This document shows positions 4,541 through 31,570 of a stretch of 64,000 bases of DNA, piece after piece. The DNA is from Utricularia gibba (lineage: Eukaryota > Streptophyta > Magnoliopsida > Lamiales > Lentibulariaceae), in assembly GCA_002189035.1 (NCBI GenBank), contig NEEC01000019.1:496001-560000 (forward strand), given 5' to 3'. Within the stretch, counting starts at the first letter, position 1; every line of letters starts with the position of its first letter. The notes under the pieces were generated by a model. It was given only the letters and a program-made list of their open reading frames with translations, was not told the origin of the DNA and made no database searches. A program made the translations under genes and the position numbers.

Positions 4541-5968
4541 TGATGAACGAAAATTTTCTAATATCGTTGCAAAAATAGAAAATTCGTTATCAAATAAATT
4601 TATAATCTCTAATCTATACAAAATATAAATTTAGAAAACTTGTATAAGAGATATCTGGGTTGATCACAAAGAGCTTGTGCTTGCTAAGTGTTTTAGTACA
4701 TGCATGATTTCGGATAACAGTAGATCTTAGTCTAAGCTCGGACTAACAGTAGTAAACAAGTTCAGTAAACAAGGTAGGTAAGCAATATCAAGTTTCAACA
4801 CTAAAGTGACAGATACTGATTCTAACTTAGAATAATACGAGGACGCCTTAAGGATCTGTAGGTGGTGTTATGCTAAAGTTCCTAACTTAATTTACCATCT
4901 TCCTACACTCACAAATTCAAATATCCTATGTCTACCCAAATCATTCATCATATTTTCGGCTAAGCTAGTCCCCAATATCATAACCAACATTGCAATTAGG
5001 TCTACCCGCATGAAAAACATATAGAATTAGGTCTACCCGATTCTACTGGTTCTACCCTGAACTAACACTGATTGCTCCCGTCTTGGTTTATTAGTCTACT
5101 TCTAAACTAAACATCTAAGTTGTGAAACTACATGTTTCCCTCCTTAGGTCTACCCATGGTTTGTTAGAAACAACAGTTAAGGAATACACATAAATTTCAT
5201 CATCAAACCTAAGCGCACACCATCCCACTTCACCTTAAGGCATCCTTAAGACTCTAGCCACTCATACTTGAAAAATAAAACACGATTTCATTCATATAAG
5301 CTGGCGAAAATAACAGAAACATTGTAAACAGGTCAAATGCAAAAACTCAAAATGTTCAGAAAACGGAAAGCAAATAAAGATTGTTCTGTCATCCGGTTGC
5401 TACTGTTCACATCCTGGAACAGTAGCGCTAGACTGGACTCCAGTGCTGCTCTTGACGATGAAGGCTTTCTTCCCCCTTCTAGTTGGTGTTTTTCGCGTTG
5501 GGGAAGAAGCTCCCTTGCGTGCATTCTGCCTCGCTGTTACTGTCTCCCCCCTCGGCTATTCCCGGTCTCTCTCATTTTCGAAATAAATTTCCCCTTTCCT
5601 TCACTCCATTGCACTGTTCCTGACCGCCAGTACTATTCCCAACCGCCAGCACTGTTCCTGGCCTAAACTTGTAGACTGCAGGTGGTGGCAGAACAGTGAT
5701 CTTTGTCCTTCTCCGGATTTTGCGCCCTTTTTCACTTGTTCCACACGTTTGCAAGTCTGATTTTCTGCTGATCTCCTTGTTGAACTTACTGAAATATTAG
5801 TAACAAAAGTTATGGACTAAATCAAAGGATTTAGTCCACTTTTTAACATAATCACATAAGATTAACATAAACACCACTTAAAGATGAAAAATCACATTTA
5901 TCAAGCCTATACCATAATAAAATATAACCATTTTGTATTATGAAATTCAGGAAAAATATGTGTCATCA
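4541..5968 (-). mobile_element. Solo LTR (copy A), Gypsy-associated family
   Basis: A 1428-bp sequence starting TGATGAACGA and ending TGTCATCA, flanked by a perfect 5-bp duplication GTTGA (4536-4540 and 5969-5973). No internal retrotransposon sequence lies inside, so this is a solo LTR left by LTR-LTR recombination. Sense strand is set by homology to the LTR next to the minus-strand gag at 57-59.7 kb, whose primer-binding side adjoins the same end. Related copies lie at 25.1-29.1 kb, 29.6-31.6 kb, 54.1-56.7 kb and 59.75-60.18 kb. It contains the family hairpin at 5813-5838 and several GTCTACCC motifs between 4930 and 5160. Confidence 0.9.
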
Positions 5969-5973
5969 GTTGA

Positions 5974-7522
5974 GGTCTGACATTGTCCCATTCCAATTTA
6001 TGTAGGCCTATGTCCGCATATTGAGAGTTAGAATCCGACTCTTGTCCTTAACCAATATGGTTATACTCATCAATTAGGTATTCTCTTTCTACAACCGATT
6101 TACGCTCCATCTTATGTTCCGCTCTGATTCCCGATTTGAGGATGATGGTAACCACTTATTTGTATTTCGTATTGCACATTTTTCTTTATCCGGATAGTGC
6201 ATAAGCTTTCTTACTCTTTCCCTCATGTTCTATGCATCAATTTCTGACTCCATCACATCCATATTATTAAAAACTTTAAAAATATTAAATTATTTATATC
6301 GTTTCTTGACTTTACCGATCACCATCTATGGTTTGGTTTTACCTCTTAATTATTGAATTGCTACTCTATTTTCCAATAATACTTTTTGGATTATTAAATG
6401 ATAGTAAATGTAGAACTATTTGATGTCATTATTAGTACAATGTTTACTTAGGTCTTTCATTTCATTTTATAATGTATTTGACAATTTTAAGATTATCTTT
6501 TCATTAAATATGTTTTATCTAATTTATTAGTGATTGATTTTTAATAAGATTTAATATTTTATATTAATAAAATAGTAAAAATAATAAATTTTAAATAAAC
6601 ATATGTTAACCATATATTAATATGATATTTTAAATTTATCGTATTCATATATATATATATTATGCATTCATACGTGTGCTTTGCAGAATATAAAAATATA
6701 AAAAATAATGTATACTATTATTGTACATTTTTTATAATCATTATTTGTAAAGTAACTTTGTTTAGTGCTTAGTTTTGTAAAAATATGATGTAGGTTTAAC
6801 TTGACAACAATGATGGTGAATAATCTAGTTAAAGATGCAATAAAAATATTAGAATGATTACTTTAGGAGTAAAAAGAAGTATAACAATAAAGGGTGGGAG
6901 CAAATATAAGCGAGAATATAATATGTAAATAATACACAAAAATTATATAAGATAAAATTTTTGATAAATATAATTGAAGCAATTATACAAGTAGTTTACA
7001 AATTGCATTTGTATGAAAAATCATGTGTATTAAACAGACCATATTCTCAAAACATAGTCCAAGAAGTTCCAAATTCCTTCTCATGCTTATTTTAATGATT
7101 GAATCAAGTGAAATTTGAACAGTACTGTAAGTTTTATTATTATCGTCATTCAAGCTCACGTGGATCTTTGCAACTTTTTCAATTATATGTCCGGGGAACA
7201 GGACTAAGCGCACTTCCTCAAGTTCCTCTGTTCGTTCCAATCCTGAGATGATCTCCAGAAACGACATAACGGAAGCCCTTTACTGTAGATTCGCATTTCA
7301 CTTGGGAAAAGGAGAATGTGAAGACTATGGTGTGTCGAGACTCAACTGGTTTCTTCTTCCACATGTAAAGCTTAAAAACAGATTCAAGATCGAACCTTTT
7401 TTGTTATGTGTTCGGGGATTGAAGCTATTTTAACCTGAACACAGTGTGAAGATTGAAGCTTTCTTGAATTGAAACACTGCAATTTCAAGTTACAGAGGAA
7501 AACGGATATTACTTTCTTGAAA
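5974..7522. other. AT-rich intergenic
   Basis: No convincing gene. A minus-strand open frame at 6983-7267 begins with an EELEEVRLVLF stretch that could be an old gene fragment, but I recognise no domain. A short AT dinucleotide run is near 6650. The 3' UTR of the BTB gene probably occupies its right edge. Confidence 0.5.
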
Positions 7523-8959
7523 CTAAACCAGAGTAACACCAGAATGGTATGAGGTTTGCCAAATCTCGATTCCTTCAGCAGCTTCTCGAGTCAGAAAAAG
7601 CCTGTCTCCAGCACCCTGTATTTTCTTGATCATTCCACGTTCAGAATCCTCTACCTTATCCATGTAATTCCTTCTGTACATCTCTTCTCTGGACAACACC
7701 CCACCAAATTCATGACCTTCAACTCTGGACCAGACCTCAAGTTCTCTATTTCTTCCCACGAAAACTTGCTTCCTGTAACCGTTGATTACCATATTCCCAC
7801 CATCAATGCTTCCAGCCTTGGACATGCTCGGGTTTTTTTCTGTCAGATAAATCCAAGGATCATCACTCAGCTTGCGTACATCCGCCATGGCTAAATCACC
7901 TGACTTTGAGCAAATCTTGAACAATAAACACTGATCCAAATCAACGTCAATATCAGCGAATGAGTCCCCAAAACGGCTGCTTCGGCCGGATCCTGGCTCG
8001 TTCGTCTCCCAGACTACTTTGCCGGATCTCACGTCCCACAGCCGTATATAGCCGGAAAAACCAAATGCGCCAGCGGAAATGGAGCTTCCGATCAAAATCC
8101 CCAATTCAGATGAGTATGCAAGCTTTGAAGGGACCATACTTTTCGAAGAATTCCCCAACATTCTCCCGATTTCCGACGACACCCCCATAGTCGATTTGTC
8201 GATTGTCAGGATGCAATTCTCGCCGTGTTGACAATCGTAGGAGGCGAAAATGGAATTCTCCCAGTGAGCAATCGCGTGGACTCGCGCCTTGTATATCCTC
8301 ACGTCTTTTGGGTCAACCCATTCTGTTGAGTGGATACGCCGGCCGTTGGCCGTGTCATACAAATGCAAGCCGGGAGCGAACAAGGACCCGACTGCAACTA
8401 CCGTGGGTCTGATTCTCTTCACGGAGCTGATGAAATCCAAGTGCGTCCTCACCGTCCCCGTGCGGTCGAGATTCCCATCGTACAACGAAATCTGGCCGCC
8501 ATGTGCCAACGCCACCGAACCATCGACATCGTCGGCGTCGAAATCGGACACAATGCCATCCGAGGAAGCACTGACGGTGGTCAACAACGACGCGTCAACA
8601 CCGTTAAGCCGACTGGGAGCAAGCGCTGATCGGAGGAGGCAATCGATGCCGAAATACACGGCCTCGTCAACCAGCTCCTGCTCAGAGAAGCGTTTCGCCG
8701 CGGACGGAAGGCGACTGGATCGCAGAAGCGAGAGGAGAACAGAGAATATCTCCGGGTCACGATCGATGAACACTGGGTCCTTAGCACCACGCCTCGAGAG
8801 GGCCTGCAGTAGGGAGTCCCGTCCCCCGGAGCACAGAGTGGAGACAGATGTCTCAAAGAGCTTACCGCCGACGTTGAATTTGACGCGATCGCCTCCGGCG
8901 ACTCCACTGGGATTAGCATCCCCCATTGGGACAAGCGGATCCGGGTCCGGATTCTTCAA
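7523..8959 (-). CDS. BTB/POZ (T1-type) protein with WD40/YVTN-like C-terminus
   Basis: Single-exon gene, 478 aa, intact. Residues ~24-109 form a potassium-channel-tetramerisation-type BTB domain (VKFNVGGKLFETSVSTL, then FIDRDPEIFSVLLSLLR, then EAVYFGID). The rest is a beta-propeller-like region with repeated W/D-rich strands, for example SGYIRLWDVRSGKVVWET and the terminal GIEIWQTSYHSGV. The architecture and length match plant BTB/POZ proteins of the At2g24240/At4g30940 type, thought to be substrate adaptors of CUL3 ubiquitin ligases; that role is family inference. An in-frame ATG 11 codons downstream (8926) is an alternative start; both precede the domain. The coding region is much more GC-rich than its surroundings. 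Confidence 0.93.
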   Translation of the reverse strand: MKNPDPDPLVPMGDANPSGVAGGDRVKFNVGGKLFETSVSTLCSGGRDSLLQALSRRGAKDPVFIDRDPEIFSVLLSLLRSSRLPSAAKRFSEQELVDEAVYFGIDCLLRSALAPSRLNGVDASLLTTVSASSDGIVSDFDADDVDGSVALAHGGQISLYDGNLDRTGTVRTHLDFISSVKRIRPTVVAVGSLFAPGLHLYDTANGRRIHSTEWVDPKDVRIYKARVHAIAHWENSIFASYDCQHGENCILTIDKSTMGVSSEIGRMLGNSSKSMVPSKLAYSSELGILIGSSISAGAFGFSGYIRLWDVRSGKVVWETNEPGSGRSSRFGDSFADIDVDLDQCLLFKICSKSGDLAMADVRKLSDDPWIYLTEKNPSMSKAGSIDGGNMVINGYRKQVFVGRNRELEVWSRVEGHEFGGVLSREEMYRRNYMDKVEDSERGMIKKIQGAGDRLFLTREAAEGIEIWQTSYHSGVTLV

Positions 8960-9524
8960 GCAGCAACACCATCAATTGGAAAAAAAAAATGACCCAATAC
9001 CAATATTTGATAGTGACGGCCCATGCCCAAGTCCTTTAACAGTAAAAATGGGCCATCGCAGGCCCAATACCAATAGCCAGCTCAGCTTACTTTTTTTTTG
9101 CTATTTTCAAACCATTCAATTATAATATTTAATTAAAACCCAAAATTGAATTTTGAAGACTTAAATTTGAATTGAAACTAAAAACAAATTTTGATTGTAT
9201 TTTACACTATGTTTGGTTGTAGTGTCGACAACAGCTATTTTTGAAAAGTAGCCATTTTAGTTTTTCTCTCACGTATTATGACAATGCGCACTTATAATTC
9301 TTGAAAATTTTTATTATTTTTTGACAATAGCCATCATATACGCATTTATGATGTTATAAATTGTTTATTATCTTTAACTACGTGTTCATTTATTAAGTGA
9401 TAATAAGTAATAATAATTATTTCCATAAACAAAACATCTGTATTAATTACAAGAGAGTGTATTTCCTACTTGGGTGAAAATAATCATGTTAATCCCGATT
9501 TATTGAAACCAGAACACAAAACTC
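8960..9524. promoter_or_regulatory. Upstream region of BTB gene
   Basis: 5' flank of the minus-strand BTB gene. A G/C-mixed stretch to ~9120 repeats GGCCCAATACCAATA twice (8991-9004 partly, and 9061-9076). Beyond that the DNA is AT-rich. No clear TATA element was assigned. Confidence 0.4.
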
Positions 9525-10037
9525 GTGTGTTTATGTGGAATTGGTTGGGAGTGGTTAAGGACTTTTGGTTTGTCGGCCACGTTGGGACTTTGTGGAGTGA
9601 GGATCGTGCAAAATCATCCTCTGTCCCCTAAACAACACAACAACACGATCAAAAGAAATACCAAACCTTACTCCTTTGTTGCATTCATATACGAAACTTG
9701 TACACAATGCTCCTCCAGCCCCCTTGACCTTAAATGCAAACACAAACTCATGAACTTATTTTGGGTACCGGGTTCGGATCCGGGTGGGTCCGAAGCGGAT
9801 GAGTACCCGGAGGGGTGGGGCAGGGCACCGGCACCAGCACCACTTTGAGAGACGATGATTGTTATGGAACTGGGAAGTGACAGTTTGGAAGTGGCACTGG
9901 GGATGCACGGGGGATTTGACGTTTTCCTACCCCACTTTTCCAGCTGCTGCGATGCGATACAGCTTGCTCCTTTTCCTCATCATTCTTCTTCTTTATTTTC
10001 CAACCCTCCGCTTCTGCTCATAATTCATATTAAATAG
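9525..10037. other. GC-rich island with unassigned open frames
   Basis: This ~500-bp stretch stands out from AT-rich flanks; 9770-9850 is strongly GC-rich. Both strands are open: plus 9525-9848 ends in a Pro/Gly/Ala-rich tail, and a minus frame reads a Gly-Ala, Ser and Pro-rich segment (GAGAGALPHPSGYSSASD). I recognise no domain or peptide-hormone motif. It could be a small unannotated gene, a gene fragment carried by a transposon, or noncoding. Confidence 0.3.
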
Positions 10038-11600
10038 AAAATATAATCAGCATTTCACATTTACTATATTCATGGAGATACGTGTTAATATCATGTGTAA
10101 GAGCTCGTTTGCTAGTAGGGTATTAGTATGTTTAAGTATAATGTAATTGAATATGTATAAATTAAATAACTTTCATCATATTCATATCTTTCTATGCTAT
10201 ACACATATCTTTATTAAAATATTTTTCATTGTATTTAAATAAGGGAACCAAACACATCCACAATATATCAAACTTCAACAAATTGAATTAAAAAACTGGT
10301 CATCGTGTAACTAGAAAATTCACATTAAATCATACTAAAAATGATTATATTTACCTACCCAATTATGCCACCTTTTATATTTAAATAGGATTAAATATTT
10401 TTTAATTCCATCCATAATTAATTAGTTGAAAATCCCATTAAAAGACGTGACCTGTCATACATTACCGTACCGAGACAAGGAATCATGGAGCATCACAGGA
10501 GACCGAATTTAAGACGGAGAGGATACCCTACGGTAGCTTGGGATGTAAATTAAGTGTTATCTGTATTAATTTATGTTAAATTAATAATTGAACCATAAAA
10601 AAGTCCCTATGCAAAATTACAAAGAGCGTGCTTGGTTTTCGAATTTAGATGAGATATATATTTTTCCATCAATTTCAATCATTTAATCTATTCACGATGA
10701 TATATATACACATATTTTAATATCCCATCAAGCACATCTTAATTTGTTATGTACATATTACTACAAACAATGATGGTTAATGGAAAACATATATATTTTG
10801 AAATAGTAGATTTTCACTTTTAAAAATTCACATGGATTAATCAATTATACTTGGGGAAAAAAACTGTGTATAAAAATAAAATAATCAATTATATATATAT
10901 ATATATAATTGATTTGCCTATAGAATTAGAATATACATATTTTAGTTTCTTTGGTATGAAGTAAATAGATCAACTTCTGATATGATATTCAATTAATTAG
11001 TAAAAATCTGAGATTAATTAAAAAAGAATGTAGATTTACATAACCTTATCTTTATTAGCTAACCAGTGTTTGATTTAATTGCGGTTCAACCGTTTTGAAC
11101 TGTGAATCGATCAACTTAATAGTTTGATTAAATTTGAGTGGTTTTAAAATATAAAATATGAATCACAATAGAATGATGATTTAATCACAATTCTATTATA
11201 GTTCAACCAACATTGAATCATAATTTGATGTTTCTTATAATAAAAATATATATTTTTAACAACGAACACATTTTAAATTTTTGGAGTAAAAATGATATTA
11301 TTAAAAATCATAATCTACCATGACGGAATTTACTAGTACACAGACAGACATTGTGAATTTTATTGCAACAAGACAGTTACATGTGTGACAAAATTGGACA
11401 CGTTTAATATAAATTTTTTAAATTAATGCGAGAAAGAATATAGGTTTGATTATTTATATAAATGAGTTGTATAAATTAAATTAATGAATATGGAATGTGA
11501 ATGTATGTATGAGGAGAGGGAGTGGCATGCAATTGCATTCACATGGAGCAAGCACCCCTTTTATTGGGAGAGGACAGAGGACTCGCATACTGCGACGCTA
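10038..11600. other. AT-rich intergenic, LAX promoter side
   Basis: Mostly low-complexity A/T, including an AT dinucleotide run at ~10884-10908. No gene or transposon protein fragment was seen. Confidence 0.5.
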
Positions 11601-12138
11601 CACACTTCTCCACAAGACAAGTTAGTTAATGCGACTGCAAATATCCACCGGCTTTAAATTCCTGCAGAAAGATCCTCTTTTTTGCTCTGCCCCTCCCCCT
11701 CCCTCCTCTGTAGCTCCCTCCCCCCTTTCTCCAATTCCACCTATTGTTATCTGCTTTTCAGACCTTGCCACGCCGTCTTCTTCCTTTCCCGCATTTACTT
11801 TTGCTAAAGCGGCTACCCGATTCATTTCATTTGATGCTGCTGCTTCTTCTTCACACTTCTTTTCATATTTAACTGCGCTGGCTACTGCTTTATTGTAGGG
11901 CAATCATTGATTACAATTTCGATCTGCCTCCTTTAATTCCTGTTTTTTAAGTTTCGTCTTTGTGCATCTTCTGTGTATATTCATTGAGAGGCTTGAGCGT
12001 CGTCTGTATACAGAGTCCTTGGTTGTTTGCTGTCAGATTTTGGATCTGGGTGTGTTTGTATTGGCCTTGGAATCACAAGTGTTTATTGGTTTGTCTCACT
12101 GACTGTCGCTCTTTTTTCTTTTTGAAGATCTGGTAACG
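11601..12138 (+). promoter_or_regulatory. Probable 5' UTR/leader of the LAX gene
   Basis: A pyrimidine-rich block (11680-11780, runs of CCCTCC, TTCTTCC) followed by GC-moderate sequence runs up to the ATG at 12139. This CT-rich composition is typical of plant leaders. A leader intron is possible but was not resolved. Confidence 0.4.
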
Positions 12139-14353
12139 ATGATGAGTCAGAAACAAGCAGAGGAAGCTATTGTTCCGCTTCCCACCTTCAATGAAACCGA
12201 TAACGACGGGACCGGTGCCGGAAAGGATGAGGAAATGGACGCCGGCGGTTTTAGCGTTAAGAGCTTCCTCTGGCACGGCGGCTCTGCCTGGGATGCCTGG
12301 TTTAGCTGCGCTTCAAATCAAGTAAGATACTCAACTCTGTCTTTCCGGCATACATTTCCGTTTTCTCAACACCTTTGGAACTGATTTCAGGTTGCGCAAG
12401 TTCTGCTAACGCTGCCTTACTCCTTCTCTCAACTGGGTATGCTCTCTGGGATCATATTTCAAATATTCTACGGCCTAATCGGCAGCTGGACTGCGTATCT
12501 CATAAGCGTCCTCTACATCGAGTACCGAACCAGGAAGGAAAAAGAAGGCGTCAGCTTCAAGAACCACGTTATTCAGGTACCCGAATTCTCTGAACCAAAC
12601 CCCTCTACTTCCTCCGAAGAACACAATAGAATTTTGATTTCTCGGATTTTCAGTGGTTTGAAGTATTGGATGGATTACTGGGTCCTTACTGGAAAGCTGC
12701 GGGATTAGCATTCAACTGCACATTTCTCCTCTTCGGATCAGTCATCCAGCTTATAGCCTGCGCCAGGTATTCAATCCTTCGTCTCCTCCGAGCTCTTCCC
12801 AAAAACTCTAACTCTCTTCTTGGCAGTAACATCTACTACATCAACGATAATCTGGACAAGCGGACATGGACATACATCTTCGGAGCTTGCTGCGCGACGA
12901 CGGTGTTCATTCCTTCGTTCCATAACTACAGAATTTGGTCTTTCCTTGGCCTTGGAATGACCACTTATACTGCCTGGTATCTCACCATCGGCGCCCTTGT
13001 TCATGGCCAGGTCATCTTCCCCCTTCATCTTGAAGAATCCGCAGTACCTTTTTCGTCAAAGTTTAATGCTTTTTTTTACCTTTAGCAGGTAGAAAACGTC
13101 CAACACACCGGCCCCAGAACCCTTGTTCTTTACTTCACCGGCGCCACCAACATTCTCTACACCTTCGGTGGCCATGCCGTTACTGTGTAAGATACCCTCC
13201 CGTGTCCGTGTCCGTGTCCATTTAGGGTTTACGCGCTGATGGACTTTTGAATTTGTCTTATTATTTAAATGACAAAAACTAAATGCATATCCTTTTTCTA
13301 ATTCTGCTGCGTAATCAGGCAAGAAGAAAACAATTTTAATTATTTAAAATTTGTATATTAGCCGTTGGCTTTTGTGGCCGGCGTTTGCAGCTTTTGCCGG
13401 TGGCCCTCCCCGGCGAGTAAACATCGACAGAATCATAAAAGTCTTTTACTTTTCATCTGCTTTTGTTACCGCAGGTTCAGTGAAAAGGGGAAACTGATTC
13501 ATTGTTTATGTAATAATAGAAAAAATATTTATTGTTTTGCAGGGAAATAATGCACGCAATGTGGAAGCCTCGGAAGTTCAAGTGCATATACTTGATTGCC
13601 ACTGCGTATGTCTTCACGTTGACAATCCCGTCGGCCTCCGCCGTGTACTGGGCCTTCGGCGACCAGCTTTTGACGCATTCCAACGCCTTGGCGCTTCTAC
13701 CACGGACCGGTTGGCGCGACGCCGCCGTCATTCTTATGCTCATCCATCAGGTCCTTTCTTCCCCCATCATCTCCCTTTTTTCCCGGTTTCGTACTGATGA
13801 TTGACTGATGGTTCGTGTTCAGTTCATCACATTCGGATTCGCTTGCACGCCTCTGTATTTCGTGTGGGAGAAGGTGATCGGCGTCCACGACACCCGGAGC
13901 ATCTGTTTGCGGGCGGTGGCACGTCTCCCGGTCGTGATTCCGATTTGGTTCCTGGCCATCATCTTCCCCTTCTTCGGCCCGATCAATTCCGCCGTGGGAG
14001 CCCTTCTCGTTAGCTTCACAGTCTACATCATCCCATCAGTTGCCCACATGCTCACTTACCGCAAAGCCGTCGCTCGTCAGGTGAGACGTTCGATCCCCAC
14101 AGCATAATTATCACTTTGATCAAGCTGACCCTCGTTAACGTTTTCTGATCAGAACGCTGCCGAGAAGCCGCCCTTCTTCATGCCGAGCTGGGCTGCAATG
14201 TACGTGATAAACACGTTCATCGTGATCTGGGTGTTCGTCGTAGGGTTCGGGTTCGGGGGGTGGGCGAGCGTGACGAACTTCGTGAAGCAGATCGACACAT
14301 TCGGGCTGTTCGCCAAATGCTACCAGTGTAAATCTCCGCCTCCTCGCCATTGA
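12139..14353 (+). CDS. AUX1/LAX-family auxin influx carrier
   Basis: Proton symporter that imports auxin (IAA) at the plasma membrane; amino acid/auxin permease family. Eight exons read through in frame to 476 aa: 12139-12321, 12391-12576, 12654-12766, 12827-13010, 13089-13186, 13543-13750, 13823-14080 and 14153-14353, all introns GT-AG. Near-invariant family blocks are present: WHGGSAWDAWFSCASNQ, VAQVLLTLPYSFSQLGML, HNYRIWSFLGLGMTTYTAW, YFTGATNILYTFGGHAVTVE, PLYFVWEKVIG and FFGPINSAVGALLVSF, ending DTFGLFAKCYQCK. The C-terminal section (NAAEKPPFFMPSW) looks closer to the AUX1/LAX1 side than to LAX2/LAX3, by memory comparison only. The start has two adjacent ATGs (12139 and 12142). No defects seen. 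Confidence 0.96.
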
Positions 14354-15622
14354 TCTCCTTCACAACGACGGAAGGGAAGCATATTCTGCAGCTGCTGCAA
14401 GGCATTTTTCTATTTTTGTTGCCCAGTATCCATTTTTACATCATATTTGTATCCCGTTTCTCCTATTTTCTATGTAACACAAAGCAACGAACAAAAAAAA
14501 TTATTTTACTGCCAAATTAATTATATGATGAATTAATGCGACACATATTAATAACTAGTGGGGAAGATGATGATGGCGTTTCATGTGGGAATGAAAGCTG
14601 GCCAGCTTGTATTCCCTTCATTGAACGTTGACGGGGTTGCTTTATTTTTAGTTTCGTTAATCGGAATTAAAAATGGAATAAAACTTAAAATAAAGGGAGG
14701 CAATGGGCCTCTTCACATGGGATGTACGTTTGGTTGCCAGATTGAAACGTGTCCTTTTTAATTCATATCTTAAAAGTCGATTTTTTTTTTATTATCTTTT
14801 TGACCGGTCTGTGATTAGGATATGCTATCCTCTAATCAACTTAAAAAATATATATATTAAAAATAATTCGACTAAGCAAATTGATAAATATAAAACAAGT
14901 TCAAGAAGACAATTTTACTAATGATCGATTTTTATGATTTCATATTTTTAAGCAATATTTAAAAATAATTTGATTGGGTGGATTGGGTTTGGTAGTTTGA
15001 AGTGCCGTTGTTAAAGTTTAAGTTATCTATTTGGGATGAAAATTTGATTGGTTTAAGATCCTATTATTTATATTTAATTAGAAGAGTTTGTTTACTAATT
15101 TTTTTATTATTGTTTATGAAATGATTAAATTACTCTCATTTATTAAAAAAAGATAAATTGTTTTCAAATTCTGCTGTCAAGACTCGTGGGGGTTTGGAAG
15201 TAATATATTCTACAAAATGGAGATTTTTTTAAATATTGCCAGCATCCCGTTTTTGAAAATAATGTGTTTAAAGTAGGTGTTATCTTGTTGTAAGATTAAA
15301 TTGCTAGACCTATTTTCTTTTTTACATAATATTATCCATTTCGAATATTTAATTCTTATGGTTTTAAGCTCTTATCTTTCAAAAAAAAAAATCTAATGTA
15401 AGATTATAAGAGTTTCTTTATTTAAATACATTTTCTTTTCATATTCATAATAAATGAAATACCGTCACATGACCGCTAGCCTTATATTCGACCTCTTTAT
15501 GCGTTTTTAAAATCAGGAGTGTTGCACATAAAATTTGATAGATATCCATTTATGTTGACTTAAATTTGATAGATGACCATCCTCCAAAAACCATTTGGAG
15601 TCTAGTCATCGTTAATTTAGGT
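14354..15622. other. LAX 3' flank and AT-rich intergenic
   Basis: Contains the presumed LAX 3' UTR, then low-complexity sequence. A short open frame at 14558-14761 has no recognisable domain. Confidence 0.5.
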
Positions 15623-15690
15623 ATTTAAAGAAAGTCAGTATTTATCAAAATACACTGACATCATTTTGATAAATACTGACTTTTTTAAAT
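15623..15690. repeat. Long near-perfect inverted repeat (foldback)
   Basis: Arms 15631-15651 and 15663-15683 are exact reverse complements (arm AAAGTCAGTATTTATCAAAA plus T) around an 11-nt loop, and complementarity continues with one bulge to 15623 and 15690. It lies ~400 bp past the PHF5A stop codon. It may be a tiny foldback element or hairpin locus. Confidence 0.8.
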
Positions 15691-16420: not shown

Positions 16421-16447
16421 TCTTACAGCAGCTGTTGCTCGATCCTA

Positions 16448-17782: not shown

Positions 17783-17829
<47 letters not shown>

Positions 17830-20544: not shown

Positions 20545-20569
20545 AATTTTTAATTTCAATTATAAGGTA

Positions 20570-20835
20570 ATATTAATGGTATTGCAAATAATTGAATTAG
20601 ATACTATTGATAAAAAATTATATTATATTATTAATAATATACAAGATCATTAGTGCCGCCTTGCATATCAGAGGTGACCCGCACCATTGTTGATGGTGCT
20701 TCGGGTGTGCACCATGAGGTGGTGCAAGGTACCATTGATGATGGTGTCGTATTGCTTGTGTCCATACTCTTTCTCCTATATATAAGTTCTATCTTCATAA
20801 ATTTTGACAGCCAAATTTTTTGATTGCAAGGGTGC
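20570..20835 (+). repeat. MULE left terminal inverted repeat
   Basis: Matches the reverse complement of 32030-32345. In the best core (20616-20669 against 32301-32248) I count about 48 of 54 identical bases. It includes near-palindromic modules CACCATTGTTGATGGTG (~20682) and ACCATTGATGATGGT (~20731), shared in kind with the right end. Confidence 0.75.
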
Positions 20836-21419
20836 GTTTGACTAAATTGGTTGAGTAGAGTTTAATTTGGAGAAAAAATTAGTAATTTTTTTTTTCTGTA
20901 AATTTTTTTGGTTATTTAAATTTTTTGTACTATTGTTAAGACCTTTAATTATAATGCGTCATAAATAATAACGTGTGAAAAATAAACACTATCACTAAAT
21001 TCAATTATATTTAAGACATTATTATTAATGAAATATCATGTTAGTTTTTCAACTTTTTTTATTGTTTGATTAATTATTTTGTTTATTAATTTGTTATATT
21101 TTTTTCTTGTTTCATATATGATACTTACAAATTTATTTTTAGCTTTTCTATATATTGACATAACATTTTTTGTATCAATAATATATTTTTATTATTTTTT
21201 TGTGTTGACTAATATATTTTATTTATTAATTTATTATATTCTTTTTTAGATATGTAATATTTATTAATTTATTGATAATTTTTCTGTAGATTGACATGTA
21301 CTCACGTCTAAGAATTCATGATCTTAAGGATCTGCGTCTATTGGATGTGTAACTGTAGAATATTACTTATGGCCTGTTATAGAGATCACACTATAAAATG
21401 ATGTAGTTCAAACACATCT

Positions 21420-23170
21420 ACAAATTATTAGCATGTAGATCGTGGGAGTAAAGTATTGCAAGACATCTTGATCATTGGGATTTTTATAGGATTATGAAGA
21501 TATTACAAATGGAACCAAACCCGAATCTACTTACAGCTCTTGCAGAGAGATGACGTCCAAAGATACATACTTTATTCTACCATGCGGAGAGGCCATCATC
21601 ACCCTTCAAGATATTTCCATACTATGGGGTCATCATATTGATGGTACATCGATAGTTCGTGCTTGCACATAACCCACAACTTAGCAATAGCGTGAGCTAT
21701 GTGTCGAACAATTTGGATAGGAGCCCAAGGAGACCTTCATTTATTGTTAGTTTTTATGAAGTATTTTTTTTTCTAAGATGCTACCAGTAACCATGGCAAG
21801 TTGAGTATCCTAGATTGGATGGTAGATCAAGATTGTTGGATGACCACTAGTTGGGGGATAGGTGTTCTAGCGAATTTGTATCTCGAGCTTGATTTATGTG
21901 CACTTTGGCGCATTACAATGGATGGTGCTCATCGTCTTTTTCAAGTTACTTTATGTGCTTCCTTTGCTAGTATTATATACATTAAAATTTATTATGTTAC
22001 AATGTTTTTTATGTAGCTTTGAGCATATATTCGGATATCATCTTTACGTCATACACTGAAGTGTAATTTCCAACACGATGTATACTGGGAGGGCGAGGGG
22101 TTTAAACCGTTCGTGTATGGTTAGAGGTTCAAAGGTTGACTTAACCACTCAAATGTGGTCTCCAACAAGTTAGAACCAATCTGTGTCATACTTTATTTGG
22201 TTTATGAAGATGAAAAGGTACATTGTTATCATATAAATATATTTTCATTTGAATCGTACATATTGACATCATACATATTTTATTATTTGTTGGACAGTTT
22301 AAGTGGACTCCTTACAAAGATATACATTTATTGTGTGTTCCTGAATGTGATCATGCTTTGGTAGTACGCCGGTCCGATGATATATGCATCTCGGGTGGAG
22401 CCTCATTGCCCTGATCAAGTTTCTCGACAGTTTGGATGTAGTCGTATTGTTCCATCCCTTCCATATTGATATCCTTCAAAACATAAGTTCACCAGAGACT
22501 TTTACGATACTGATTAGACATTGGAGAATGCTGCATGTATAGTTTTGTGGGCATCTAGGCACATTCACATTCTCCAGCTACATGAGATCCCTATAGTGTC
22601 TGAGGCATCGTACATGGCATCGTATATGCCGCATGCGCCGTTGTATTTTGGAAGAAGATATTGAGAGAAGGGTGATAGATATTGAGGTGGAGATGCAGAG
22701 CCAATAGCTTATACGATTAAATGACTCTTTATGTAAATATGGGTCAGATCGTCTAAATTAACTTTTGATATCTTGTTTTTTCTCATGTCCCATAGCTAGA
22801 CAAATTTCGTGGTGGGAATAAAAAAGCAACGTGGGCATATGAGGGTCTGAACTAGAAGCTTTGATGGAGCCAGTTGCTCGTGCTGCAGCAATCACCGCTA
22901 CCTAGTGAGACTTATCCATATTTGGGAACTGATGATGACCCTGCACAAGTTCACATGGACCAAACATATGAGGATTTCAATTTAGAGATATTTCAACAGG
23001 ATATGACCCTAACGAGCCAACCATCAATATGCGAGACTCATTCTTCCTATGTGCGACTGCCACTCTTGACTATTACTTTATCATATCCTTGTTGCCTTCC
23101 TTACCCAGAGTTCATGATGCCCCACATAGGATTGAGCCAGTATAGTGTTGAGAGGGGACATGCATATTGA
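21420..23170 (+). pseudogene. Plant mobile domain (PMD) protein gene, decayed, carried by MULE
   Basis: Frames in order give FILPCGEAIITLQDISILWG (the PMD hallmark FHLPxGExTITLxDVxxLxG), a middle segment around WMVDQDCWMTTSWGIGVL, then FKWTPYKD (PMD FxWxPY), a DNA-level match to the VRQFG region, and an acidic tail (22874-23170). Stops and frameshifts occur throughout. PMD proteins include MAIN and phosphatase-7 long-form homologues; transposon-borne copies are common. Confidence 0.65.
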
Positions 23171-25194
23171 AGATTCCCATTTCCATCACCATATAATGGT
23201 CCACATGATGCGATCCATCTGTTATCATGACGACAATGTAGGCATGGGTAAATGAAACCACCATTCCAATGATTATATGTAGATGTGTTTTATCGTAGTA
23301 AAATGTGATGTAAATCATTATTTAGTAAGCTACTTTTACGAAAACAGTTTGAAAACAATTATATACAAAATATCAAAAATAAATAAGTTCTATAGCAATT
23401 AATCAAAGTTGTTCAAATTAGAAAATATTGAATTCATCAGACTATTCTATTGGTGATGGATATACTCTCCAATCCATCTCCTTGTGTATTCTTGTGCGAT
23501 GCTATCGACCAACAATAGTCCGACTGTGTGCAAGATTATGGTATAGGGTCCAGCCTAGGTAGAGGACATAAGTATCAGAATCAAGAGGTCTGAAAATCTC
23601 TTCACTCTATGTTTATAGCAGAGCATGCAATATATCGAGACTAATCATGAGATCGTCAGCACTTATCTTTACATTTTTACAAGTAGAATATCATGAGAGC
23701 ACGGAACATCATACTTAGTCCACCTTCCACAACTACAAGTTTGATCACAAAGCATCACTTTGTAGAGATAAGATCTCTCTTTCCCATGGTTGATGACTTC
23801 AATCTTAAATGACATATTCGCAATCTTGAATTGATACACCTTGTGTGTCTTGACTCATTCTCGTGTTCTATCCCAAAAATGTTTTTCCTCCTCTGAGAGA
23901 GCCTGTGTATACATAAAGTAAAATAATGAAACATTAAAAACATCCAAGATTAGGTAACATCAATATTGTACCTGATGGTTTTATGTCATTGAGGTGATCT
24001 CTTATTTACTCTCATGGAGGATGATAGCCAACATGTACAACATAGTCTCAACAATTGTATCTGAGGTAAGTTGACGACAAACCTTGAAAATATTGTTCAT
24101 GATTTCCATTGCATTAGAAGTAATATTCTCATAACGTATACTTAAATCATATGAGAGTGTCTGTTTATCAAATGGACCATTTTTCGGCTCAAAGAGCCAT
24201 GCATAAGCCATCAAATTTTTCTTTTGAATCCTTTCGAGGTACATCATCAACTTTTTTGGATCATAGTTCGATCCAACATTGTAAGTCATTTGCTTAAGTA
24301 TTTTTTTTCCAAACTTCTTGTTGAAGTTGGAAACATATTGACGCAAATACCAAAAGTGGGCTAGACGACCTTCTTGAAATCTGGCATAATTCCTCACAAC
24401 TACAAGCATGCCTCTAGCTCTGTCTGAGATTATGCTAGCCTGACCTTGACAAAAAAAAGTGCTCGGGTAGCAAATCTATAAACCAGAGGTATTCATCCCT
24501 ACTCTCCTCATTGAAAACTGCATGGGTTAGTGGTAGGATGTGACCACCTCGATCCTTGATAGTGGCCACAGCCAATTTCTGGTCATAACATCCATATAAA
24601 AAGGTGGCATCAACCGTAACAACAGACCTCCAAAACTTGAATGCTCAAATAAAGGGATTATAGGGTCAAAAAACATAATGCATGATTTTAAGGTCATCTC
24701 CTACAATAGTGAGAAAACAATCCCATGAGACCACTATCCTGGTATTGGCCTACATGATTGCCACAAATAATGTAGGTAGCTTTTGCATCAATGATTCCCA
24801 TGTTCTATAAATCAACTCAAAAACAAGTTGAGCACTGTATCATACACGTTCATAAATAATCTTTTCATGATATTTTTCAAAAATATATTTTCAAGCATCT
24901 ACAACTCTAATTTAGACAACAAAGAAAAGTTATTAAAAATGTAAACTATATAAAGAAATTTAAGAAATATTTAAACTACACCTCCTCTTCTATGTGCAGT
25001 ATACATAAGCTCATATCCAATGAATAAATCATAAAGGTTGCGATGTTGCGCTCCATCCATGTATGTCTTATAGGTATGTGGAAAGTCACAGATTGATACT
25101 TGACAAACTCCATCACGTGTAGATTGCATAATGATGAACGGAAATTCCTATTATCGTTGCAATAAAAATAGAATTCTGTATCAAATAAATTTGT

Positions 25195-26602
25195 GATGAC
25201 ACACATTTTTCCTGAAATTTATAATGCAAAATAGTTATATTTTATTATGGTTTAGGTTAGATAAATGTGGTTTTTCATGTTTTAGTGGTATTCATGTTAA
25301 TCTCATGTGATTATGTAAAAAGTGGACTAAATGAGGATTTAGTCCACAACTCTTGTTACTGATGTTTTAGTAAGTTCAGCAGGGAGATGGGCCGAAAATC
25401 AGACTTGCAAGCGTGTAAAACAAGCGAAAAAGGGCGCAAAATCTGGAGAAGGACAAAGAGCATTGTTCTGCTGCCACCGCAGTCTACAAGTTCAGGCCAG
25501 GAGCAGTACTGGCGGTCAGAAACAGTACTGGCAGTCAGGAATAGTGCAATGGAGTGAAGCAAAAGGGAAAATTATTTCGAAAATGAAAGAGAGCGCGAAT
25601 TGAAGCGGACAGCAGGGGGCACAATGGGTCTTCTTCCCCAACGAGAAAAACACCAACCAAAAGGGGAAAGGAAGGCCTCCATCATCAAGAACAGCTCCAG
25701 AGCCCAGTCCAGCACTACTGTTTCGGGCTGTGAACAGTAGCTAACGGGCGGAAGAACAATCTTTATCTACTTTCCATTTTTTGAATATTTAGAGTTTCTG
25801 CATTTGACTTGTTTACAATGTTTTTGCCATTTTGGTCAACTTACATGAATGAAATCGTGTTTTATTTCCCAAGCATGAGTGGCTAGAGTCTTAGGGATGC
25901 CTTAAGGTGAAGTGGGGTGGTATGTGCTTAGATTGATGATGAAATTTAGTTGTCTTCCTTAACTCTTGTTTCTAACAAACCATAGGTAGAACTAAAGAGG
26001 GAAACAAGTAGTTTAACAACTTAGATGCTTGGTTTAGAGGTAGACCAACAAACCAAGACGTGAGCAGTCGGTGTTAGTCCAGGGTAGAACCAGTAGAACC
26101 GGGTAGACCTAGTTCTATATGCTCTGCATGCGGGTAGACCTAATTGCAATGTTGGTTATGATATTGGGGACTAGCTTAGCCGAAAATATGATGAATGACC
26201 TTGGTAGACTTAGTTATTTGAAGTTGTGAGTGTGGGAAGATAATAAAATTGAGTTAGGAAGCTTAGCATAACACCACCTACAAATCCTTAAGGCATCCTT
26301 ATATTATTCTAAGTTAGAACCAGCATCTGTCACTTTAGTGTTGAAACTTGATATTGCTTACCTACCTTGTTTACTGAACTTGTTTACCACTGTTAGTCCG
26401 AGCTTAGACCAAGACTTCCTACTATCCCAAATTATGCACTCACTAAAACACTTGACAAGCACCATCTCCTTGTGATCGACCCCGATATCCACTATACAAG
26501 TTTTCCAAATTTGTATTTTGTGTAGATTAGGGATTATAAATTTATTTGATATAGATTTTCTATTTTTTTTTTGCAACAATATTAGGAAATTTCCGTTTAT
26601 CA
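25195..26602 (+). mobile_element. Solo LTR (copy B) inserted into LTR C
   Basis: 1408 bp, TGATGACACACA to CCGTTTATCA, in reverse orientation to C and flanked by a perfect ATTTG duplication (25190-25194 and 26603-26607). No internal region. Family hairpin at 25322-25347. The perfect TSD and its position inside C make it younger than C. Confidence 0.88.
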
Positions 26603-26862
26603 ATTTGTAATCCCTAATCCTTACAAAATACAAATTAAACACATAATATAAAGTGGAATTCGAGGTCGATCACAAGGAGGTTTTTACTTTCTAAGTGTTT
26701 CAGCAGATGCAGAATTCTGAATAATAGTGGTTTTTAGTCTAAACTCAAATTAACAGTAGTAGACAAGTTCAATAAACAAAATCAAGTCTCAACACTGAAA
26801 ATAATAGATATTGGTTTTAATACGGAGTAATATTAATATGCCTTAAGGGTCTGGAGGTGGTG

Positions 26863-28036
26863 TGATTGATTACACATATTTTTGAGTTATTAATTATATG
26901 GAAAAGATTCATATTGTGCTACGAAAATTAAGTTTTACTACATAGTTCTATATTTTTGTGCATAAGTACCGTAGTTGTGTTATTTTAGTCTTATTTGGGA
27001 CTAAATTTACGATTTAGTTCCAACTTTCTAATAGTTTCCTCCGAGCAATGCAGCACATGTCGACAGCACAAATCGTAAGGAGTCGAATATGAACAATGTA
27101 GTGGCAGAGGATGAGACATAAGTCTGAAAAGGAGTACACCCAAAATCCAAGAAGGAGAAAAAGGGAGATTTTGGACAAAAAGGGGGACAAGATGGAGAGA
27201 GAAGACAGATCTCCCCATTGGAGACTCTCAACACGCTTTCCAGAGAAGGTTTTCTGGTGAGGAAGAAGAGTAAAAACAAACAGGAACTAAGCTGATGCTT
27301 GAAGATTATTTTCTGTTTTCCAAAGATCATTACTCTTAGCTAGGAATAGCTAGCGACATTTCCAGCTTTCTGTTGAACTTTTAAATTTCCTGCTTGTTTA
27401 TTTTTTGGTCGTCGACTGAAGGATGAGTATATTATGGATGATGTTTTATTTTCAACTTTCATTTATCTTAAGCATGAGTGGCTAAGTACTTAGGGGGTGC
27501 CTTGGGTTGAAAGGGGGAAAAATGTGCTAATCAATCTTTAGACCTAATCAGCTATAAGTCACGTCACTTCCTTAACAAACCAGGATAGATCCAGGAGAGG
27601 GAAGTAGTTAAACCCAACTTAACAACCCTAATTTGAGTTAGACCAAAGATTAAGGGAAAAACAAGAATCCGGGTAGACCTAGATTTTTGTGTGTTAGTTG
27701 TATGATTTATGGTTTGTAGGAGCTTGTTTAGTGATAAGCATACATTCTCTAGGAGTCCCAAGGCATCACCCATTTCATTCCAAAAATAACCGAACTCCAA
27801 AACTTATTACTTTTCTTTACTATATTCTGTTGTAATTCTGCCTTACTCCTAGTTAAGACCAATTCTATCAACGTGACACTTTAACTTTCACATAGCAAGC
27901 ACCTAGCTCCTTGTGTTCGACCCTATTCCACTATGGTCATATTTTCCATATGATTTGAGGTGAATTAGGTTTATAAATTTTATTTAATTGGAGAAATTTG
28001 TAATTTTATTGACATTGCTAAATTTTCATTTATCAG
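26863..28036 (+). mobile_element. Solo LTR (copy E), divergent subfamily, inserted into LTR C
   Basis: ~1174 bp, TGATTGATTACACA to TTTATCA, flanked by GTGGTG (26857-26862 and 28037-28042; 5- or 6-bp TSD). It shares the LTR end, the CATGAGTGGCTAAG region and the hairpin position with A/B/C/F, but differs elsewhere. Closest relatives are the LTR at 46475-47037 and the partial copy at 56823. Confidence 0.82.
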
Positions 28037-29614
28037 TGGTGCTAAAATGACTAATTTAATTCACCATGTTTCTATATTTACAACTTTAAACAACTTAAGT
28101 TTACTCAGGTTATTCATCATGTTTTTGGCTAAAATAATCCTCAATATCATCACTAACATCACAATTAGGTCTACTCACATGCAAAGTGTATAGAACTAGG
28201 TATACCCGGTTTTACTAGTTCTATCATGAACTAATACCTACTGTCCCCATTTTGATTTATTGGTTGACCTCTAAATCAAGTGTCTAAGTTGCGAAGCTGT
28301 TCATTTCCCTCCTTAGGTCTACCACCCATGGAATGCTAAAAATAAAAGTTGAGAAACAATGATAAATTGTGTTATGAACCCTAAACCCACACCACCATGC
28401 TTCACCTTAAAGCATTCCTAAGATTCTAGATATTCGTACTTGGAAGACAAAACATAATGTCATTAAGATTAAATAGCCAAAGTAACAGAAACATTGTGAG
28501 GAAGTCTATCATAGAAACTAAAACATTAAGCAAACGAAATAAAGTAAAAAATTATTCTAGTTCCGTTCTGCTACTATTCACTACCCGGAATAGTAGACAG
28601 AACTGAGCTTTGGTGGTTTTCTTGAGGATGAAACTCTTCTTCTCCTCTTTTGGTCAGTGTTCATAGTGTTGGAGTAGAAGCCTATGTTGTGTCACTGCTG
28701 GTCCTGCTCTCCCCGCTCGGGTCTCTCTTTTGAAAAATATCTCCCTCCTTTACTCCATTGCACTGGACACCAGCACTGTTCTCGGCCTAAATTTGCAAAC
28801 TACAGGCGGCAGAACAATGCTCTTTGTCCCTCTTCGGATGTTGTGCCCTTTTAACTTGATCTAACGTCTTTGAGTTTGATTGGATGCTAATCCTCCTGAT
28901 GAACTTAATTAAACATTAGTAATAAAGGTGGTAGACTAAATCAAAGGATTTAGTCTACTTTTCAACATAAATACAAAAAATCAACGTAAACAACACATAA
29001 ATCATGCAAAACCACATATAAACACTTGATCCCTAAACCAGTGTAAAACATAAACACTTTTGTATTATAAAATGCAAAGAAAACATATGTCATCATATAA
29101 TCCTTATGCATCAATGACACTTGATCCATGTTAGCATGAGCATATTTGCCCTCCCAGAATGTGGGCTGACTAACCGAAACAATGAATTCATATCTTCATT
29201 TTATATGACAGTGGGCAACACAATATTGGGAATGAATTTTACTAGCAAATACAATTCCTTTGTTCAATATATATACCTTCTCATTGTAGTGTCTATACTT
29301 GTCACCATATTTAAATTCTTCGAACACGAAAAGTGTTTATCGGATTGTTTTAAAAAAGGGGTATTGCATCCTCATGGAACACCCTAAAGAATTGTCAAGA
29401 GCGAGATCATGGCAATTGTAGTGCACAAGGTGCCTCAATTTCAATCTCTGGTGCTTTGTCGTCGCAAACATTCTTTGAAGAGGCTTCAGAATCCTCTCTC
29501 AAGTTAGTATCTCCACTGTCATCATCAAAATCGACCATATCTTCAAAAAAAATCATTGACAATAACTTCATAGATTTAGACTTAACATAGCTAAAATTAC
29601 TTTATGAGGGGAAT

Positions 29615-31570
29615 TGTTAGCACACAAATTTTCATATTTTAGGATATGAAAAAATCAATGACAATAACTTGTTTGGTAGCGGTAAACTGTTTCTGATAGC
29701 TATGTGATTAAACATTACAGCTGCGAGATGAATTCTGTTGCATGAGCTTTGTAAACCTTTTTGATACCCGTGAGCATGTTTTTATCTTTTTATTTCATGA
29801 GAGCATGTGTATTACCCGAGGAATCTAAGGAGTGTGCTCCAAATTATTTTTATATGAATTGTTGAACTTCATAGTCACTGTGGAACAGGTTACCAACCAC
29901 GGAAAAAAGAGAGGTGAATAAAGGGTCGTGAAGGAAAAAAAAAGAAAAAAAGTTGAGACCCAAGTCCTAAAAAGCAGCACATATTAAAAGAGCATGTGCG
30001 GACTAAATAAGTAGTGGAAGGGTGAGCAGGGAAAGACTAATCCGGAGGAGTACGGAAGAGTCTGGTGTTATAAGGTGTGAGTGCCTGCCCAACACTCATA
30101 AAAAGAAAAGGTTTTCTGTTAGTCTTAGGTAGGACTTGGGGACAAGTCTAGTGTCGTTGTAGCATAGTGTGATAGCACACAAAGTTTCATGTTTTAGGAT
30201 ATGAAAAATCATAAGTTTTTAATTACGTTTAAGTATTTATTTTCTATTTTTAAGTATTTTTATGTAATTTAGGAAAATATAATTTTGGTGTGATTAGTGG
30301 GCTAAATCCTTTGATTTAGCCCACCCCATGTCTAACCCAATTTTGGAGTCTAGCAGCAACCCAACAATCAAGGAAAAATTTGGATTTCGTGCAAGTCACC
30401 AGGGTGCAGGGGCAATGAGTACACTGTCACGATGGCAGTCTGCAAGTCAGGGCCAGGAGCAGCTGATTTATCAGAGAATGTACTTGCCTTGGGCAGTGGG
30501 AGGCAAGAGAAACAGGAGAAGGAGAGAGAGTTGCAAAAAGGGGGGTTCGACCAGAATTTTAAGAACACACACGAGAGGGTTTCTCCCTCAACTTGAATAG
30601 GAAGAATGCTGAAGGAGGAGGAAGAGATTTTTTTTCTGGAGAAGAACATCCTCCGTGAAGGAAGAAGATTAAGACTCAGTTCAGCGTTACTGTTCCGGGG
30701 CCGGAACAGTAGCAGATGGAAACCAGAACTCTTACTGCTTTATTTTAATTTGTTGATGTTTTTAGCTTTTGCACCCAACTTCTGCATGATGTTCTTGACA
30801 TTTTCGTTGTTTTATGTTAATGCCATCACTTTTTATCTTCAAAGCATGAGTCGCTAAACCCTAGGAGTGCCTTAAGGTGAAGCATGGTGGTGTGGGTCTA
30901 GGAGTCTTAATAAATATCACTATTGTTCCTTAGTTCTTGTTTCTACCAAGCTATGGGTAGACCTAAGGAGGAGAACAAGTAACTTCACAACTTAGATGTT
31001 TGATTTAGAGGTAGACCAACAAATCAGGACGGGAGCAGTAGGTGTTAGTTCGGGGTAGAACGAGTAGAACCGGGTAGACCTAGTTCTATATACTTTGCAT
31101 GCAGATAGACCTAATTGTAAGGTTGGTGATGACATGAGAGACTAGCTTAGCCGAAAATATGATGAATGACCTAAGTAGACTAAGGTTATGTGAAGTTGTG
31201 AGTGTAGGAATATGGTAGATTAAATTAAGGATTTTGGCACCATACTACCTGCAAACCCTTAAGGTACCTTAGTATTATTTTGAGTTAGAACCAGTATCTG
31301 TTACCTTAGCGTTAAGACCTGATATTATTCACTGATCTTGTTTACCGAACTTGTTTACCACTGTTGGTCCGAGTTTAGACTAAGACTACCATTACTTTGA
31401 ATTCTATATCTGCTGAAATACATGACAAGTACAAGCTCCTTGTGATCTACCCCGAATTCCACTATACACTTTGTGTTTAAATTGTATTTTGTGAGGATTA
31501 GTGACTATAAATGTATTTGATACGGAAATTTGCTTTTATTGCAATGATATGCTAAAATTTCCGTTTATCA
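29615..31570 (+). mobile_element. Internally deleted LTR retrotransposon (copy F)
   Basis: Flanked by a perfect GGAAT duplication (29610-29614 and 31571-31575). Left: only the first ~41 bp of an LTR (TGTTAGCACACAAA). Middle (~29656-30168): noncoding sequence ending with a GACTTGGGGACAAG motif often seen near the 3' end of plant Gypsy internal regions. Right: full LTR at 30169-31570 beginning TGATAGCACACAAAG. This suits one element whose 5' LTR and most internal sequence were deleted. Hairpin at 30297-30324. It interrupts the MULE transposase. Confidence 0.78.

What the first reader, a model, noticed from the sequence alone, without database searches (positions are those of the whole stretch)
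5813..30324. Covarying hairpin at a fixed position inside an LTR family
LTR copies A (5813-5838), B (25322-25347), C (28931-28958) and F (30297-30324) each carry a perfect 11-12-bp inverted repeat with a 4-nt loop, always ~127-137 bp from the sense 5' end of the LTR. Arms: TGGACTAAATC in A, GTGGACTAAAT in B, GTAGACTAAATC in C, GTGGGCTAAATC in F. At two stem positions both partners changed together (G-C to A-T in C; A-T to G-C in F), so pairing was kept while sequence changed. Divergent LTR E has the same stem with one G-T pair (~26995-27022). This suggests selection on a folded RNA or DNA cruciform in U3, possibly regulatory or packaging-related.
Basis: partly seen in the sequence, partly recalled or inferred. 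Interest (0 to 1): 0.62.

Follow-up and report, generated by a model that had tools for sequence, protein, structure and literature searches.

The report
Flipping palindrome in plant retrotransposon LTRs
A 28-base palindrome sits at a fixed place near the start of the long terminal repeats of several families of Athila retrotransposons in a plant genome; it is conserved while its surroundings are not, but its matched changes and repeatedly inverted centre point to copying between the two DNA arms plus sequence-specific selection, rather than to selection on an RNA fold.

Summary
Five Athila-clade LTRs in the window carry an inverted repeat about 128-138 bp from the LTR 5' end (U3). I collected 160 LTR starts using queries that exclude the hairpin.

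Between four LTR lineages the arms are the least-diverged of 16 segments tested, in all six comparisons. The core CTAAATC starts at median position 133-134 in every lineage although flanks are about 35-60% identical. A fifth lineage keeps the core too. Paired changes between lineages are real.

The RNA-fold interpretation is not supported. Among 134 intact hairpins, 100 changes are one-sided and 2 cells double-compensatory. G-U and A-C mismatches are equal (29:30). An element whose two LTRs share three one-sided arm mismatches still transposed.

The 3-4 nt loop is inverted in 16 copies, all inferred as separate events. In one element with matching target-site duplications the two LTRs carry AAGG and CCTT. 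This matches published template switching between inverted-repeat arms, which homogenises arms and inverts spacers, so covariation here is not diagnostic of RNA structure.

Best reading: a palindromic U3 DNA element under sequence selection, with symmetry partly maintained by arm-to-arm copying. Also noticed: 17 nt matching the 5' end of tRNA-Asp stand where a polypurine tract is expected.

The parts
4541..5968 (-). LTR A, complete solo LTR (5' end at 5968), target-site duplication GTTGA at 4536-4540 and 5969-5973
   Evidence: TG..CA ends, 5-bp duplication; 40 copies scored in the genome
5813..5838 (-). H1 palindrome of LTR A: TGGACTAAATC CTTT GATTTAGTCCA in sense, 11-bp perfect arms, 12th pair G-U
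   Evidence: z -4.9
5399..5426 (-). H2, second palindrome of LTR A: GCTACTGTTC..GAACAGTAGC, 10-bp arms, 8-nt loop, about 543 bases into the LTR, at the edge of the part alignable with LTR F
   Evidence: z -4.2
25194..26602 (+). LTR B, complete solo LTR, target-site duplication ATTTG
25322..25347 (+). H1 palindrome of LTR B: GTGGACTAAAT GAGG ATTTAGTCCAC (inner C-G pair lost)
   Evidence: z -3.4
26867..28035 (+). LTR E, inserted inside LTR C (flanks GTGAT / GTGGT)
26995..27023 (+). H1 palindrome of LTR E: TTGGGACTAAATT TAC GATTTAGTTCCAA, 13 pairs including two G-U
   Evidence: z -2.6
26599..29095 (-). LTR C (26599-26866 and 28036-29095), split by LTR E
28931..28958 (-). H1 palindrome of LTR C: GTAGACTAAATC CTTT GATTTAGTCTAC
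   Evidence: z -3.8
28571..28596 (-). H2 palindrome of LTR C: CTACTATTC..GAATAGTAG (G-C to A-T on both sides relative to A)
30170..31570 (+). LTR F; preceded by internal-domain sequence, so a 3' LTR
30297..30324 (+). H1 palindrome of LTR F: GTGGGCTAAATC CTTT GATTTAGCCCAC
   Evidence: z -6.0
30688..30711 (+). H2 palindrome of LTR F: TACTGTTCCG GGGC CGGAACAGTA

Best explanation
H1 is an old palindromic cis-element in U3 of a group of Athila (Ty3/Gypsy) retrotransposons. SHOWN: its core GACTAAATC-(3-5 nt)-GATTTAGTC and its distance from the LTR 5' end were kept in the lineages that went on transposing, while neighbouring U3 sequence diverged; dead copies lose it at an ordinary rate; the centre is repeatedly inverted, at least once after the two LTRs of one element had been copied. 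INFERRED: what is selected is the double-stranded, sequence-specific palindrome, most likely a site where a dimeric host factor reads both half-sites (U3 enhancer-type element), not a fold of the RNA. INFERRED: exact matching of the arms, including part of the paired substitutions, is produced or restored by template switching between the arms (or cruciform resolution) during DNA synthesis, which also inverts the loop. Function and the recognising factor are not shown.
For: Conservation: net divergence of the arms is lower than in all 15 flanking 24-column windows in each of six lineage comparisons (e.g. AB-F 0.08 against a median of 0.33; AB-E 0.05 against 0.37). Position: CTAAATC starts at median 134, 133, 133 and 134 in AB, C, F and E, interquartile range at most 1. 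A fifth lineage (L180/L181, target-site duplication ACCAC) keeps TAGACTAAAT..ATTTAGTCTA near position 130. Within lineages the arms vary about as much as flanks. Against an RNA fold: GU 29, AC 30; H2 GU 57, AC 46, p 0.32. Template switching: loops CTTT/AAAG, TAC/GTA, TGT/ACA, TAT/ATA, TGC/GCA; 16 inverted copies = 16 minimum changes on flank trees; TSD-verified pair L174 (AAGG) and L175 (CCTT), duplication GTTTT on both sides. Published mechanism: arm homogenisation plus spacer inversion, spacer inversion only with arms >9 bp (PMC8604942). Inversions in F are commoner in perfect than one-mismatch hairpins (18/51 against 7/49, p 0.02). Outer-arm asymmetries stay in place in inverted copies such as L078, so only the centre flips.
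Against: No binding factor or motif family was identified, and 12-bp half-sites are long for a dimer site. Template switching alone may make inverted repeats more conserved than their surroundings, as PMC8604942 says of bacteria, so conservation is not pure proof of function. The inversion-perfection association is absent in E (7/39 against 11/56). Only five lineages from one genome were compared, and U3 flanks align poorly. The element is not strictly needed: L178/L179 transposed with three outer mismatches, and L072 and L083 (one clade, different flanks) look as if they share a deletion of it.
Confidence: 0.55

Rival explanations
1. Selection on an RNA stem-loop in the 3' part of the genomic RNA (3' LTR U3) or on another transcript.
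For: Stable fold (z -2.6 to -6.0); between-lineage paired changes: A-T to G-C (F), G-C to A-T (C and L180 lineage), one extra G-C pair on both sides (E); H2 also shows double changes (T-A to C-G in 11 F copies).
Against: GU = AC among one-sided changes; A-C variants inherited by transposing lineages (L178/L179); loop inversion with arm homogenisation explains paired change; the inner seven pairs hardly change between lineages, which an RNA structure does not require; no Rfam match.
Confidence: 0.15
2. No function: an ancestral palindrome kept perfect by template switching alone.
For: Repeated loop inversion; PMC8604942 reports homogenisation and higher conservation of short inverted repeats; dead copies show no extra constraint.
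Against: Homogenisation keeps the arms equal to each other but does not by itself hold the same sequence and the same 133-134 position in lineages whose flanks are nearly saturated; on dead copies only 2 double changes accompany 100 single ones, so correction is slow compared with mutation.
Confidence: 0.17
3. A DNA cruciform or single-stranded DNA hairpin is the functional form (nucleosome exclusion, integrase or reverse-transcription intermediate) at a fixed distance from the LTR end.
For: Loop inversion is what cruciform resolution or template switching gives; fixed distance from the LTR terminus; equal tolerance of GU and AC suits DNA.
Against: Arms of 11-13 bp are short for cruciform extrusion in vivo (general knowledge); strong sequence conservation of the core is not needed for a cruciform; an element with a broken outer stem transposed.
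Confidence: 0.1
4. The palindrome is a tiny mobile or repeatedly acquired unit that inserted into different LTR families.
For: A and F share only these 28 bp in the 5' part of U3 by BLAST.
Against: Same position to within a base or so in four lineages and shared LTR ends and 3' parts indicate inheritance; many pattern matches keep LTR-specific flanks.
Confidence: 0.03

Closest known systems
Palindromic repeated-motif (RM) boxes and the junction inverted repeat of Sirevirus (Ty1/copia) LTRs (PMC2829016)
   Same: Plant LTR retrotransposons; palindromic, strongly conserved motifs in otherwise divergent LTRs, proposed by the authors as cis-acting transcription elements; one inverted repeat precisely positioned at the 3' LTR junction.
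   Different: Sirevirus RMs are repeated many times, have a CGG-CCG core and lie just upstream of the TATA box; H1 is a single AT-rich element about 128 bp from the LTR start in Athila (Ty3/Gypsy) and shows loop inversion.
Template switching between short inverted-repeat arms in yeast (PMC8604942)
   Different: Described in coding genes of S. cerevisiae; here in retrotransposon LTRs, with LTR pairs serving as internal controls.
Small flip-flop inversions of hairpin loops in plant chloroplast DNA (PMC6342102, citing Kim and Lee 2005)
   Same: Loop of a perfect hairpin found in both orientations, homoplastic.
   Different: Organelle DNA, longer stems (18-19 bp); here nuclear repeats with 11-13 bp stems.
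Athila / Calypso / Diaspora elements (PMC1142308, PMC6317226)
   Different: Diaspora has a polypurine tract abutting the 3' LTR; none was seen here. No palindrome or hairpin is mentioned in that paper (term search).

Membership tests
Athila clade of Ty3/Gypsy LTR retrotransposons | Pol with RT, RNase H and integrase domains of Ty3/Gypsy type | tested here: met
   L166 ORFs match RVT_1 (5.7e-27), RT_RNaseH (1.2e-28), Integrase_H2C2 (3e-13)
Athila clade of Ty3/Gypsy LTR retrotransposons | ATHILA ORF-1 type protein downstream of pol | tested here: met
   L168 ORF: PF03078 4.3e-6, above its cut-off
Athila clade of Ty3/Gypsy LTR retrotransposons | Primer-binding site complementary to tRNA-Asp (reported for Calypso/Diaspora) | tested here: met
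   14 exact TATCA-AAT-TGGCGCCGTTGCC junctions; tRNA-Asp genes end CCCCGGCAACGGCG
Athila clade of Ty3/Gypsy LTR retrotransposons | Polypurine tract abutting the 3' LTR | tested here: not met
   No purine run >=8 in the sequence examined (54-160 nt) upstream of twelve 3' LTRs; only window F has runs, not adjacent to the LTR. This is a general LTR-retrotransposon feature, not one that defines Athila, so the Athila assignment rests on the rows above
Athila clade of Ty3/Gypsy LTR retrotransposons | Placement in the RT phylogeny | not tested
   No RT tree was built
Structured RNA element conserved by compensatory change | Excess of double compensatory over one-sided changes | tested here: not met
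   Within lineages 2 double against 100 single; between lineages double changes do occur
Structured RNA element conserved by compensatory change | G-U tolerated better than A-C on the RNA strand | tested here: not met
   29:30 for H1, 57:46 for H2
Template switching between inverted-repeat arms | Exact spacer inversion with arms retained | tested here: met
   16 independent cases, one in a TSD-verified LTR pair
Template switching between inverted-repeat arms | Arm homogenisation of a former mismatch | tested here: inconclusive
   Double changes exist (L086, L104, F and E lineages), but intermediates were not resolved on a tree
Sirevirus-type palindromic RM box | Many copies per LTR with CGG-CCG core upstream of TATA | tested here: not met
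   One H1 and one H2 per LTR; core CTAAATC

The most novel reading that the evidence does not exclude
The palindrome acts as a structured DNA element at a fixed distance from the retrotransposon end. A cruciform or single-stranded hairpin of the cDNA or chromosome would be used by the element, and arm-to-arm copying during reverse transcription or replication would actively keep it symmetric, so that selection and a self-correcting mutational process cooperate.
Probability: 0.1. Interest if true: 0.7.

Novelty: new variant of a known kind. Interest (0 to 1): 0.47.

Why it matters
Covariation in a hairpin is widely read as evidence for a functional RNA. This case shows, with LTR pairs as a built-in control, that a DNA-level process acts on the same palindrome and can mimic that signal in repeats. 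It also gives a conserved, positionally fixed U3 element in an abundant plant retrotransposon clade that can be tested in a reporter.

Tried and rejected
2) Mobile palindromic insert: rejected on constant position and shared LTR ends. 3) Double-sided cells in L030, L031, L084, L096, L102 and L107 were discarded as alignment of deleted or decayed hairpins; copies with gaps or more than five changes were excluded. 4) The L184/L097 pair (AAAA against CTTT) is the closest pair by LTR identity and forms a 99% clade, but its flanking 5-mers do not match, so it is only supporting. 5) L172/L173 (CTTT against AAAG) both follow internal sequence and are not a simple LTR pair. 6) 5' LTR partners of flipped copies L012, L188, L190 and L038 were not found in the upstream stretches fetched. 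7) Rfam: no match. 8) R-scape is not available; pairs were counted directly. 9) The plant species was not identified.

Full report
WHAT IS THERE. They belong to complete LTRs of about 1.17-1.43 kb. A (4541-5968, minus) and B (25194-26602, plus) are solo LTRs with 5-bp target-site duplications GTTGA and ATTTG. E (26867-28035, plus) sits inside C (minus), and F (30170-31570, plus) is a 3' LTR because the bases before it recur in front of many other copies. The window is C142:496001-560000 of a 100-Mb assembly; plant-type genes and Athila elements indicate a plant.

WHICH ELEMENT. Ten-kilobase stretches next to two copies gave ORFs with RT, RNase H and integrase zinc-binding domains (L166), and gag and ATHILA ORF-1 (L168), all on the strand that makes TGATGACACA the 5' end of the LTR. 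The 5' LTR is followed, after AAT, by TGGCGCCGTTGCC, the complement of the tRNA-Asp 3' end.

SAMPLE. I searched the genome with the first ~125-135 bp of LTRs F, E, C and B, which exclude the hairpin, and fetched 40 copies for each. The sample is therefore not selected for having a hairpin.

CONSERVATION. Between lineages the hairpin arms have the lowest net divergence of 16 segments in all six comparisons: AB-F 0.08 against a flank median of 0.33 (lowest flank 0.27), AB-E 0.05 against 0.37, F-E 0.12 against 0.37. The core CTAAATC starts at median position 134, 133, 133 and 134 in AB, C, F and E. A fifth lineage (L180/L181) has TAGACTAAAT..ATTTAGTCTA near position 130. Within lineages the arms decay about like flanks, as expected of dead copies. 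Constraint therefore acted in the lineages that kept transposing.

COVARIATION. Between lineages the arms differ by paired changes: A-T to G-C in F, G-C to A-T in window C and in L180/L181, and an extra G-C pair on both sides in E. Within lineages, in 134 hairpins without gaps and with at most five changes, 100 changes are one-sided and two cells (L086, L104) are double and pairing. One-sided changes that leave G-U number 29 and those that leave A-C number 30; an RNA fold would favour G-U. In E, a G-U variant (14 copies) and an A-C variant (5 copies) are both shared by several copies, so both were transmitted. L178/L179, two LTRs of one element (duplication GTGGG, LTRs 96-97% identical), share three one-sided arm mismatches, so that element transposed with a broken outer stem.

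INVERTED LOOPS. The loop is CTTT in most AB, C and F copies and AAAG in some; in E it is TAC, TGT, TAT or TGC and, in others, the exact reverse complement. On trees built without the hairpin, 16 inverted copies need 16 changes (6 F, 7 E, 2 AB, 1 C). Among F copies with perfect arms 18 of 51 are inverted, with one mismatch 7 of 49 (p 0.02); E shows no such difference. The element at C460:285-302 kb has GTTTT on both sides, the primer-binding site after its 5' LTR, loop AAGG in the 5' LTR and CCTT in the 3' LTR. Since the LTRs are normally identical when made, this inversion happened after LTR duplication, in the last DNA synthesis steps or on the chromosome.

MECHANISM. Template switching between inverted-repeat arms is known to homogenise arms and invert spacers, with arms over 9 bp, and its authors link it to inverted repeats being more conserved than their surroundings (PMC8604942). 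Loop flip-flop is known in chloroplast hairpins (PMC6342102). The same process can turn a one-sided change into a two-sided one, so paired changes in H1 do not by themselves show selection on pairing. It does not hold a fixed sequence at a fixed position over lineages whose flanks are nearly saturated. I therefore combine the two: sequence selection on a palindromic DNA element, with symmetry helped by arm-to-arm copying. The selected function, most likely transcriptional by analogy with Sirevirus palindromic boxes (PMC2829016), is inferred.

SECOND PALINDROME. H2 (GCTACTGTTC..GAACAGTAGC) lies about 520-545 bp into the LTR in AB, C and F, where the part alignable between A and F begins. It shows double changes (T-A to C-G in 11 F copies, G-C to A-T in 3 C copies) and no significant G-U preference (57:46).

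LIMITS. One genome, five lineages, weakly alignable flanks; few primer-binding-site junctions (14 exact) limited the number of LTR pairs; trees have many weak branches; no expression or binding data. Counts from pattern searches are lower bounds.

Noticed in passing
window 30153-30169, and before 3' LTRs genome-wide: The 17 nt directly before the 3' LTR, GTCGTTGTAGCATARTG, match nt 1-17 of tRNA-Asp (GTCGTTGTAGTATAGTG) at 14-16 of 17, with 42 exact pattern matches, and no polypurine tract abuts the 3' LTR, while the primer-binding site is complementary to the 3' end of the same tRNA. A 5' fragment of tRNA-Asp would have the right polarity to prime plus-strand synthesis exactly at U3.. Possibly more novel than the hairpin.
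   Followed up: partly
window 5399-5426, 28571-28596, 30688-30711: A second LTR palindrome (H2, CTACTGTTC..GAACAGTAG) with paired changes, lying at the edge where LTRs A and F become alignable again.
   Followed up: partly
last ~50 nt of the internal domain, e.g. window 30118-30150; E-type LTR start in L064: A conserved block TTAGTCTTAGTTAGGACTTGAGGACAAGTCTAG with a small hairpin GACTTG..CAAGTC; 17 of 18 bases (TTAGTCTTAGTTRGGACT) recur in the E LTR at its H1 hairpin (shuffle maximum 15).
   Followed up: partly
G000 C3:5154146-5155563 and C460:626-636 kb: LTRs with internal 3' sequence on one side and a primer-binding site or another such LTR on the other, suggesting tandem LTR-internal-LTR arrays.
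   Followed up: no
L176/L177 (C1:5871-5879 kb), L054, L070, L138: Deletions ending inside the palindrome are common in dead copies; in L176/L177 only one of the two LTRs lost the 5' arm.
   Followed up: no
window 46475-46633 and 56559-56671: Further decayed relatives: an E-like LTR start at 46475 with an imperfect hairpin, and an LTR 5' end at 56671(-) without one.
   Followed up: no
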